Assembly: GCF_900452385.1 (NCBI RefSeq)
Contig: NZ_UGOA01000001.1
Location: 753,501 to 817,500 of the forward strand
Direction of reading: 5' to 3'
DNA length: 64,000 nucleotides
From: Legionella donaldsonii
GTDB taxonomy: Bacteria; Pseudomonadota; Gammaproteobacteria; Legionellales; Legionellaceae
The translations under genes and the position numbers were made by a program. Under the pieces are notes generated by a model. That model was given only the letters and a program-made list of their open reading frames with translations. It ran no database searches and was not told where the DNA came from. Shown piece by piece: positions 49,119-51,200 of this stretch (positions are counted from its first letter, which is position 1; every line of letters begins with the position of its first letter).

Positions 49119-51200
49119 ATGGAACAGAAAAAGACTGAGAAAATTATAATTTTTGATACAAGCTTGCGAGATGGTGAACAAGCACCTGGTGCGACCATGA
49201 CCTTAGCTGAAAAAATCACTATTGCTGAATCATTGGATAATATGGGAGTTGATGTCATCGAAGCGGGGTTTGCTATCGCTTCGCCAGGGGATTTCAATTG
49301 CATTGAAACTATTTGTAAACAGGTTAAAAATGCGTCTGTTTGCAGTTTGGCTCGTGCAAAAAAAACGGATATAGAGGCTGCACATGCAGCTCTGAGGACG
49401 GCCTTTAACCCTAGAATTCATACCTTTATTTCGACGAGTGCGATTCACATGCAGCATCAGTTAAAGATGACACAAGAAGAGGTGCTGCAAGCAATTTATG
49501 AGTCTGTCTATTATGCCAGAAGGCTGTGTGCCAATGTCGAGTGGTCTGCGATGGATGCTACCCGCAGTGAGATTGATTTTCTAGCGCGCGCTGTGGAGAC
49601 GGCAATTAGTGCTGGAGCCACCACGATTAATATTCCTGATACAGTAGGATATACCATTCCGAGTGAATATGCGGCACTGATCCGAACAATAAGGGAAAAG
49701 GTTCCGACTAGCGACAAAGCGATTATTTCGGTTCATTGTCATAACGATCTTGGTTTGGCAGTTGCTAATTCATTGGCAGCAATTTCAGCAGGTGCCAGGC
49801 AAATAGAATGTACTGTAAATGGTATCGGTGAACGTGCTGGTAATGCGGCCTTGGAAGAGATTGTGATGGCTATCAAAACTCGTCGCGATCAATTCAATTA
49901 CATGACCCAAGTTGATCCCAAGCATATTGCTGCAGTATCAAAATTGGTTTCTGCTGCAACGGGTTTTCCAATACAAAAAAATAAAGCAATTGTCGGAGCC
50001 AATGCTTTCGCTCATGAGTCTGGAATCCATCAGGATGGGATGTTGAAAGCCCGTGAAACCTATGAAATTATCAGCCCTGAATCAGTTGGTTTTGGCGAAT
50101 CAGAACTGGTATTAGGCAAACACTCAGGTCGTGCAGCCTTACGGGATAAATTAAAGGCTTTGGGTATTGAATTAGACGAGACTCATTTTTCTCGTGTATT
50201 TAACTGCTTTAAGCGTTTGGGTGATGCCAAGAAACAGATCTGTGATGAAGATATTATTGCTTTAGTTAGTGACAAAGAATCCCAGATCATCGCTTTAAAT
50301 GAAGCTAAACTGCAAGTTATTTGGTTGAACGGAGAGTTTGTGCCTTGGGATGAGGCTAAAACCCATGTTTTAACGCATGGTCTTCACTATGCAAGTTCTG
50401 TCTTCGAAGGGGAGCGGGCTTATGAAGGCAACGTGTTTAAATTAACTGAACATAACAAGCGTCTGCATGAGTCAGCTAATATTTTAGGATTCAAAATTCC
50501 TTATTCGGTCAGCGAATTGAATACGGTTACCCGTGAATTACTCAAAAGAAATCAATTAAAGAATGCTTACATAAGGCCAGTTGCCTGGTGTGGAACTGAA
50601 ACTTTAAGTGTTGCCTCACAAACTTGTTCAGTGCAAGTGGCTATTGCTGCCTGGGAGTGGCGTTCTTATTTTGCAGCAGACGATTTATTTAACAAAGGAT
50701 TAAAGCTGATGTGGGCGGATTGGGTAAGGCCATCACCCTCAATGGCACCAGTCAAAGCAAAGGCTGCTGGATTATATATGATTGGTTCTTTGAGTAAAAA
50801 CAAGGCTGAGCGCGCAGGTTTTCATGATGCATTGATGTTGGATTATCGTGGCTATGTTGCTGAATGCACTGGGGCTAATTTTTTCATGGTGAAAGATGGG
50901 GTTATTTACACGCCGATCGCTGATTGTTTTTTGAATGGTATTACTCGTCAAACCATCATAAAACTGGCTCGAAAACATCATATTCCCGTTATTGAACGTC
51001 ATATTTATCCGCATGAAATTGCGCAGGCGGATGAAATCTTTATTACAGGTAGTGCTGTTGAAGTAGCGCCTGTGGGGCAAATCGGTAATCACCGCTTTGC
51101 CATAGGAAATATTAGTAAAACGATCGCGGCAGCATATAGCCAATTAGTGAGAGGGGATGAGTATGAAAACATTGTACGACAAGATTCTGGCGCAGCATAA
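49119..51200 (+). CDS. LeuA-IlvE fusion: 2-isopropylmalate synthase plus branched-chain aminotransferase
   Basis: One 693-residue frame contains two enzymes. Residues 1-385 are the LeuA HMGL catalytic module and subdomains, with R17-D18-G19-E20 and H206-C207-H208-N-D intact. The leucine-binding regulatory domain expected after about residue 390 is absent. After a short link, residues 399-693 are a complete class IV branched-chain aminotransferase (WLNGEFVPWDEAK, HYASSVFEG, PLP Lys548 in APVKAKAAG). It would catalyse the first committed and the final steps of leucine synthesis. AAGAGG precedes the ATG, and the leuC start lies inside its 3' end, so the fusion is part of the leu operon. Confidence 0.92.
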   Translation: MEQKKTEKIIIFDTSLRDGEQAPGATMTLAEKITIAESLDNMGVDVIEAGFAIASPGDFNCIETICKQVKNASVCSLARAKKTDIEAAHAALRTAFNPRIHTFISTSAIHMQHQLKMTQEEVLQAIYESVYYARRLCANVEWSAMDATRSEIDFLARAVETAISAGATTINIPDTVGYTIPSEYAALIRTIREKVPTSDKAIISVHCHNDLGLAVANSLAAISAGARQIECTVNGIGERAGNAALEEIVMAIKTRRDQFNYMTQVDPKHIAAVSKLVSAATGFPIQKNKAIVGANAFAHESGIHQDGMLKARETYEIISPESVGFGESELVLGKHSGRAALRDKLKALGIELDETHFSRVFNCFKRLGDAKKQICDEDIIALVSDKESQIIALNEAKLQVIWLNGEFVPWDEAKTHVLTHGLHYASSVFEGERAYEGNVFKLTEHNKRLHESANILGFKIPYSVSELNTVTRELLKRNQLKNAYIRPVAWCGTETLSVASQTCSVQVAIAAWEWRSYFAADDLFNKGLKLMWADWVRPSPSMAPVKAKAAGLYMIGSLSKNKAERAGFHDALMLDYRGYVAECTGANFFMVKDGVIYTPIADCFLNGITRQTIIKLARKHHIPVIERHIYPHEIAQADEIFITGSAVEVAPVGQIGNHRFAIGNISKTIAAAYSQLVRGDEYENIVRQDSGAA

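What the first reader, a model, noticed from the sequence alone, without database searches (positions are those of the whole stretch)
49119..51200. LeuA catalytic module fused to a branched-chain aminotransferase, with the leucine-sensing domain replaced
Residues 1-385 are a LeuA HMGL module with its catalytic residues intact. The usual C-terminal leucine-binding domain is missing, and residues 399-693 are a full IlvE-type aminotransferase with PLP Lys548. The protein joins the first and last steps of leucine synthesis in a leuA/ilvE-leuC-leuD-leuB operon. Losing the allosteric domain should remove direct feedback inhibition. I do not recall a described enzyme of this design; I could not search.
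Basis: partly seen in the sequence, partly recalled or inferred. Interest (0 to 1): 0.8.

Follow-up and report, generated by a model that had tools for sequence, protein, structure and literature searches.

The report
Fused leucine enzyme with RNA switch
A Legionella-type bacterium carries one protein that joins the enzyme starting leucine synthesis to the enzyme finishing it, in place of the usual leucine-sensing part; as the bacterium seems unable to make valine, the protein probably helps turn valine into leucine, with leucine sensed by an RNA switch in front of the gene.

Summary
Window 49119-51200 (+) is one unbroken 693-aa frame: a LeuA catalytic module lacking the LeuA_dimer regulatory domain, fused by a short variable linker to a complete IlvE-type aminotransferase, heading leuC-leuD-leuB. 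It is not a sequencing error: full-length fusions occur in 7 of 140 sampled Legionellaceae genomes and in one genome of another gammaproteobacterial family, with every position examined conserved and both halves under purifying selection.

The interpretation needs two changes. First, ilvC is over its cut-off in 0 of 140 sampled Legionellaceae, and the full-fusion genomes also lack ilvD over cut-off and a close avtA relative. LeuA's substrate 2-ketoisovalerate thus most likely comes from valine, in this genome through the fused aminotransferase itself: it feeds the first step and does the last. Second, leucine control is probably not lost: the gene is preceded by a leucine leader peptide with alternative terminator and antiterminator, kept in three diverged lineages; five fusion loci (one with both) have a divergent Lrp/AsnC-type regulator.

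Activities, leucine insensitivity and channelling are untested; the structure job never finished. No description was found in the open papers searched. New variant of a known kind.

The parts
49119..51200 (+). leuA-ilvE fusion gene, 693 aa
49119..50273 (+). LeuA catalytic module, residues 1-385 (HMGL barrel plus HCS_D2 subdomain)
   Evidence: Pfam; 13 positions identical in 9 of 9 fusions
50274..50312 (+). short linker, residues 386-398, variable in length and sequence between species
50313..51188 (+). branched-chain aminotransferase module, residues 399-690
50760..50762 (+). codon of the PLP-binding lysine K548
   Evidence: aligned with a lysine of E. coli IlvE, (role recalled)
48899..49042 (+). 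leucine leader peptide, 47 aa, 8 of its last 15 residues leucine
   Evidence: tail conserved in L034, L035, L123, L125
49028..49032 (+). antiterminator 5' arm GGGCG, inside the last codons of the leader peptide
49075..49079 (+). antiterminator 3' arm CGCCC, overlapping the terminator 5' arm
49070..49099 (+). intrinsic terminator (9-pair stem, then T run) between leader peptide and leuA-ilvE
51157..52569 (+). leuC (isopropylmalate isomerase large subunit); its start overlaps the end of the fusion gene
52572..53183 (+). leuD (isopropylmalate isomerase small subunit)
53176..54264 (+). leuB (isopropylmalate dehydrogenase); start inferred from the protein

Best explanation
A bifunctional enzyme, 2-isopropylmalate synthase plus branched-chain aminotransferase, that together with LeuC, LeuD and LeuB converts valine to leucine. 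The aminotransferase half takes the amino group from valine, giving 2-ketoisovalerate; the LeuA half condenses this with acetyl-CoA; LeuCD and LeuB make 2-ketoisocaproate; the aminotransferase half puts an amino group back, giving leucine. In the limit the amino group simply cycles (valine + ketoisocaproate to ketoisovalerate + leucine). The leucine-binding domain of LeuA has been replaced by the aminotransferase; in the window's clade leucine is sensed instead by transcription attenuation at a leucine leader peptide, and in other carriers probably by a divergently encoded Lrp/AsnC-type regulator. Shown: fusion, conservation, missing domain, missing ilvC/ilvD/avtA at the thresholds used, attenuator anatomy. 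Inferred: both activities, valine as the source, loss of allosteric inhibition, function of the attenuator and of the Lrp-type regulator.
For: Intact frame and domains; 13 LeuA and 14 aminotransferase positions examined are identical in 9 of 9 fusions; dN/dS window versus L. feeleii 0.048 (LeuA) and 0.084 (aminotransferase); 0.08-0.13 in the five distant comparisons where dS could be computed, though those dS values (1.6-2.5) are near saturation. ilvC: 0 of 21 and 0 of 140 genomes over the cut-off, against 14 of 14 control genomes. ilvD: 0 of 21 over the cut-off, and no match at all in 6 of the 8 genomes with a full fusion. LeuA_dimer: none in any of the 8. No close avtA relative in 8 of 8 (best E 1.9e-16 at 25% identity). 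The window's genome has no separate IlvE: its other two class-IV enzymes score best as D-amino-acid transaminase and PabC, both below cut-off. Leader peptide, terminator and antiterminator in 5 of 5 leader loci from three lineages. Lrp/AsnC genes beside 5 fusion loci. A review passage calls L. pneumophila a branched-chain amino acid auxotroph that needs a valine transporter inside host cells (PMC6123439).
Against: No activity data. Three genomes with a full fusion (G112, G111, G100) also have a separate IlvE-like gene, so the fused domain is not everywhere the only route from valine. Lack of ilvC is family-wide, so it does not correlate with the fusion. ilvB, pantothenate genes and amino acid dehydrogenases were not tested. 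Sub-cut-off ilvC matches (17-24 bits, about 70 positions) occur in 52 of 140 genomes, none in a full-fusion genome listed, and sub-cut-off ilvD relatives in two full-fusion genomes, G104 and G111. Two genomes have a LeuA-only copy of 402 or 387 aa from within the fusion group (G104, G092). Truncated LeuA is reported by title to lose function. When the whole terminator region is folded, the G111 leader prefers the antiterminator. The promoter scan of the leader region found no more than chance. The structure prediction did not return.
Confidence: 0.7

Rival explanations
1. Structural replacement: the aminotransferase, itself a dimer in its family (recalled), mainly serves as a new dimer clamp that keeps the LeuA catalytic part active in place of the LeuA_dimer domain; pathway coupling is secondary.
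For: The swap occurs about where LeuA_dimer begins in ordinary LeuA (residue 383 of the L036 frame). [quoted passage not shown]
Against: LeuA-only copies exist in G104 and G092 and a 394-aa LeuA-like protein in Caballeronia. The aminotransferase positions examined are all kept and the domain is under purifying selection, which a pure scaffold would not need.
Confidence: 0.2
2. Plain convenience fusion: the aminotransferase only does the last step with glutamate as donor, while 2-ketoisovalerate reaches LeuA from elsewhere (uptake or another transaminase). No valine shuttle.
For: Three full-fusion genomes have a second IlvE-like gene; aminotransferases of another fold with unknown specificity give weak hits in 8 of 8 genomes.
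Against: No ilvC or ilvD above cut-off, no close avtA relative, and no separate IlvE in the window's own genome.
Confidence: 0.2
3. The LeuA half works on another 2-keto acid (a homologation or citramalate-type reaction) rather than on 2-ketoisovalerate.
For: The catalytic core is shared with citramalate and homocitrate synthases.
Against: The score passes the TIGR00973 LeuA cut-off and lies below the citramalate and homocitrate cut-offs; leuC, leuD, leuB follow directly; the leader peptide is leucine-rich.
Confidence: 0.05
4. Artefact: two ordinary genes joined by an assembly or sequencing error.
For: One related genome (L. tunisiensis, L035/G118) has the gene in three frames, and G203 has leuB in three frames, so assembly errors or decay do occur in the group.
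Against: Same single frame in several assemblies from 98% down to 63% identity.
Confidence: 0.01

Closest known systems
LeuA, 2-isopropylmalate synthase (TIGR00973; PF00682 + PF22617 + PF08502)
   Same: HMGL catalytic barrel and HCS_D2 subdomain; conserved positions; leu operon context
   Different: LeuA_dimer allosteric domain absent, aminotransferase in its place
IlvE branched-chain aminotransferase, PRK07544 type
   Same: Complete domain, scores above the equivalog cut-off, 14 of 14 positions kept
   Different: C-terminal part of a longer protein; groups with Niveispirillum enzymes and apart from the free-standing IlvE of other Legionellaceae
Naturally short LeuA relatives: plant methylthioalkylmalate synthases (chain 6e1j; review passages), tomato feedback-insensitive isopropylmalate synthase (title in a reference list), a 394-aa LeuA-like protein of Caballeronia pNK81
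   Same: LeuA core without the usual C-terminus (for the plant enzymes recalled; for Caballeronia judged by length); Caballeronia has it next to an aminotransferase gene
   Different: Not fused to an aminotransferase; the Caballeronia aminotransferase is only 28% identical to the fused one
Mycoplasma penetrans methionyl-tRNA synthetase with appended aminotransferase (PMC7694997, abstract and outline seen)
   Same: An aminotransferase fused to an enzyme so that it can supply that enzyme's substrate, in a host-dependent bacterium with eroded biosynthesis
   Different: Different partner enzyme; there the aminotransferase makes the amino acid, here (proposed) also the keto acid
leu operon attenuators (E. 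coli leuL, annotated; review passage)
   Same: Leucine-containing leader peptide, then alternative terminator and antiterminator ahead of the leu genes
   Different: No Rfam match over threshold; stands before a LeuA that lacks its allosteric domain

Membership tests
LeuA (2-isopropylmalate synthase) | HMGL catalytic domain with conserved metal and catalytic positions | tested here: met
   13 positions identical in 9 of 9 fusions, (roles recalled; one of the 13, L16, was labelled as the neighbouring arginine R17, itself invariant)
LeuA (2-isopropylmalate synthase) | score over curated bacterial LeuA cut-off | tested here: met
   TIGR00973 601.4 vs 598.7 and NF002086 625.6 vs 532; NF002087, NF002088, NF002084 and NF002085 stay below their cut-offs, presumably for want of the C-terminus
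LeuA (2-isopropylmalate synthase) | C-terminal LeuA_dimer allosteric domain | tested here: not met
   no PF08502 in the protein or in the genome
LeuA (2-isopropylmalate synthase) | condenses 2-ketoisovalerate with acetyl-CoA; inhibited by leucine | not testable with these tools
   no assay
Branched-chain aminotransferase (IlvE) | complete Aminotran_4 domain, PLP lysine and motif residues | tested here: met
   PF01063 profile positions 2-223 of 223; K548 and 13 other positions identical in 9 of 9
Branched-chain aminotransferase (IlvE) | score over curated IlvE cut-offs | tested here: met
   PRK07544 429.1 vs 396, PRK06606 329.1 vs 279, TIGR01122 295.9 vs 245.55
Leucine attenuator | translatable leader peptide with clustered leucine codons | tested here: met
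Leucine attenuator | mutually exclusive terminator and antiterminator | tested here: met
   each folds as a separate segment in 5 of 5 loci; with the whole segment the terminator wins in 4 of 5 and the antiterminator in G111; prediction only
Leucine attenuator | leucine-dependent readthrough | not testable with these tools
   needs expression data
Leucine attenuator | match to a curated RNA family | tested here: not met
   best is Phe_leader, 22.5 bits vs gathering score 55

The most novel reading that the evidence does not exclude
A self-contained valine-to-leucine converter: one polypeptide that takes the amino group off valine to feed its own LeuA site and puts it back on 2-ketoisocaproate at the end, with the aminotransferase dimer also taking over the structural job of the lost regulatory dimer, and with leucine sensing moved from protein to RNA. 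It would let an intracellular bacterium that can only take up valine still make leucine.
Probability: 0.4. Interest if true: 0.75.

Novelty: new variant of a known kind. Interest (0 to 1): 0.62.

Why it matters
It is a natural case in which the allosteric domain of a textbook feedback-regulated enzyme has been exchanged for another catalytic domain, while leucine control seems to be kept by a leader RNA. It makes testable whether LeuA needs its regulatory domain for activity or only some dimer partner, and it shows how a host-dependent lineage that apparently cannot make valine could still keep leucine synthesis by using valine as feedstock. It also warns that models built on gene presence could misjudge this pathway.

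Tried and rejected
Artefact, two genes in one frame: rejected.

Hidden LeuA regulatory domain in the protein or elsewhere in the genome: rejected at the thresholds used.

Wide spread of the fusion: not found. At E <= 1e-150 only G203 had a full match besides the window among 369 genomes of the class; among 299 of the phylum none besides the window; among 385 of the alphaproteobacterial class at E <= 1e-155 none, all 11 matches being LeuA alone. A fusion of independent origin with lower identity could be missed. In genome contigs 94 stretches encoded a relative and the best 80 were kept; the fusions among those 80 were L. feeleii and a broken L. tunisiensis copy. That scan used six short patterns and missed the 70% copies. 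In plasmids 1 of 778 matching records covered 80% of the query: Caballeronia pNK81, two separate genes. Phage records: 0 of 41 matching records covered 80%. Viral contigs: 2 loci with LeuA matches and no aminotransferase match; one is a 519-aa LeuA, the other a partial match at a contig end.

An adjacent leuA-ilvE gene pair as precursor of the fusion: not seen among the loci (weak class-IV hits, 24-28% identity, near four LeuA genes; flanks of 6 kb or less).

Rfam: no family over its gathering score.

Papers: ten searches. I saw passages of PMC10464499, PMC3274521, PMC8490860, PMC5727371 and PMC6123439 and the abstract and outline of PMC7694997. The two papers on LeuA truncation were seen only as titles in reference lists. 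Mapping plant substrate-specificity residues onto this protein was tried by eye and dropped because the numbering did not fit.

Structure prediction: job accepted, polled up, never finished; there is no structural evidence here, and no fold search was made.

Full report
What is there. Window 49119-51200 (+) is a single frame of 693 codons. Residues 8-277 match the HMGL barrel and 291-372 the HCS_D2 subdomain of isopropylmalate synthases; residues 428-655 match class-IV aminotransferases over the whole profile; LeuA_dimer is not detected. Six bacterial LeuA models run out at position 382-389 of 494-523, about where the regulatory domain would begin, and the next part scores over the cut-offs of three branched-chain aminotransferase models. 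For comparison, an ordinary LeuA of the same kind (L036) shows LeuA_dimer from residue 383 of its frame. leuC, leuD and leuB follow on the same strand.

It is real and old. The window's genome is a close relative of Legionella feeleii: the same fusion is 98% identical in strain WO-44C. Among 140 sampled Legionellaceae genomes, 7 hold a full-length frame (G000, G072, G112, G111, G100, G008 with two copies, G104). One more full frame, 63-64% identical, lies in G203, the only sampled genome of its order, in another family of the class; that assembly has ambiguous bases and a leuB split over three frames, so I weigh it less. leuC, leuD and leuB follow the fusion in the loci of G072, G112, G111, G100 and G104, and in part where the contig ends or frames break (G008, G203, G116, G118).

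Both halves are maintained. The 13 LeuA and 14 aminotransferase positions examined, including K548, are identical in 9 of 9 aligned fusions (their roles are recalled, not taken from a call). Against L. feeleii dN/dS is 0.048 for LeuA and 0.084 for the aminotransferase. In the five distant comparisons where dS could be computed it is 0.08-0.13, with dS near saturation; in the rest dS was saturated. The 13-residue linker varies freely.

Origin. In a quick maximum-likelihood tree the fused aminotransferases join four alphaproteobacterial (Niveispirillum-type) enzymes with full support and stand apart from the free-standing IlvE of other Legionellaceae. The fused LeuA parts form one group (support 92, not starred) whose nearest neighbours in the tree are two Thermomicrobiales LeuA (support 89), in a part of the tree that is otherwise alphaproteobacterial. 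Rows were chosen by similarity to this protein, so the sampling leans to alphaproteobacteria. Two LeuA-only proteins, in G104 (402 aa, about 9 kb before the fusion) and G092 (387 aa, paired with G203), fall inside the group and look like later losses of the aminotransferase. Both trees contain long branches.

Where the substrate comes from. LeuA needs 2-ketoisovalerate, normally made by IlvB, IlvC and IlvD (pathway knowledge). IlvC is over the cut-off in 0 of 21 chosen genomes and 0 of 140 Legionellaceae, while the same search rings in 14 of 14 controls. Weak matches of 17-24 bits over about 70 positions occur in 52 of 140, presumably from other dinucleotide-binding proteins. IlvD is over its cut-off in 0 of 21; 11 of 21 have a relative at about half the cut-off score, among them the full-fusion genomes G104 and G111, probably phosphogluconate dehydratases (recalled). 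No close relative of E. coli AvtA is found in 8 of 8 full-fusion genomes; all 8 give weak hits (best E 1.9e-16, 25% identity). The window's own genome has no separate IlvE; its two other class-IV proteins score best as D-amino-acid transaminase and PabC, both under the cut-offs. Three full-fusion genomes (G112, G111, G100) do have a free IlvE-like gene. IlvB was not tested. The simplest reading is that 2-ketoisovalerate is made from valine by transamination, in the window's genome by this very protein. The fusion then couples the supply of the first step with the last step, and the amino group can cycle between valine and leucine. This is inference. A review passage fits: L. pneumophila is called a branched-chain amino acid auxotroph that needs a valine transporter for growth in host cells (PMC6123439).

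Control by leucine. Ahead of the fusion gene lies a 47-codon leader peptide (48899-49042) with 8 leucines in its last 15 residues, then a terminator (stem 49070-49093 and a T run to 49099). The last codons of the leader carry GGGCG (49028-49032), which can pair with CGCCC (49075-49079) in the terminator's 5' arm in an alternative fold. The same arrangement occurs in L. feeleii, L. tunisiensis, G111 and G008 (one of two copies). Folded as separate segments, both structures form in 5 of 5; folded together, the terminator wins in 4 of 5 and the antiterminator in G111. The three lineages are only about 70% identical in protein, so peptide tail and stems are conserved well beyond recent ancestry. 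Expected logic: enough leucine, the ribosome finishes the leader, covers GGGCG and the terminator forms; too little leucine, it stalls upstream and the antiterminator forms. This step is inferred; no promoter above chance was found by the simple scan and no Rfam family matches over threshold. Five fusion loci in four genomes (G112, G100, G104 and both G008 copies) have a divergent Lrp/AsnC-type gene next to the fusion; one G008 copy has both. That these sense leucine is inference.

What remains open. Whether the LeuA half is active without its regulatory domain is the main risk: titles seen in reference lists say the domain is required in the Neisseria enzyme. The aminotransferase may replace it structurally. 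No structure model could be obtained (last polled). Loss of leucine inhibition, both activities, and channelling are untested.

Novelty. I found no described LeuA-aminotransferase fusion in the searches listed, which cover open-licence papers only. The nearest design is the Mycoplasma penetrans methionyl-tRNA synthetase with an appended aminotransferase that can supply its substrate (abstract). The parts are known; the combination and the regulatory swap are, as far as I could see, new.

Noticed in passing
window 48651-48803: A second leucine-rich small ORF upstream of the leader peptide, also in L. feeleii and L. tunisiensis. Its leucine codons (48770-48781) are 11 of 12 complementary to the ribosome-binding region and start of leader peptide 2 (48888-48899), a pairing present in the predicted fold of the whole leader; its tail (48785-48795) is 10 of 11 complementary to 49029-49039, a pairing not in that fold. 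Possibly a two-peptide leucine relay.
   Followed up: partly
L126 3081-4286 (G104): A free-standing 402-aa LeuA catalytic module without LeuA_dimer or aminotransferase, about 9 kb before the fusion, from within the fusion group.
   Followed up: partly
L136 6010-8368 (Caballeronia sp. NK8 plasmid pNK81): A 394-aa LeuA-like protein, too short for the regulatory domain, next to a 364-aa aminotransferase gene 28% identical to the fused domain: an unfused parallel association.
   Followed up: partly
L035 and L134 (L. tunisiensis / G118): The fusion gene is spread over three frames, leuB over two and a neighbouring peptidase gene over three: decay or a poor assembly; described only.
   Followed up: no
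L127 (G203): leuC and most of leuD lie in one frame and leuB in three; either assembly errors or further rearrangement of this operon.
   Followed up: no
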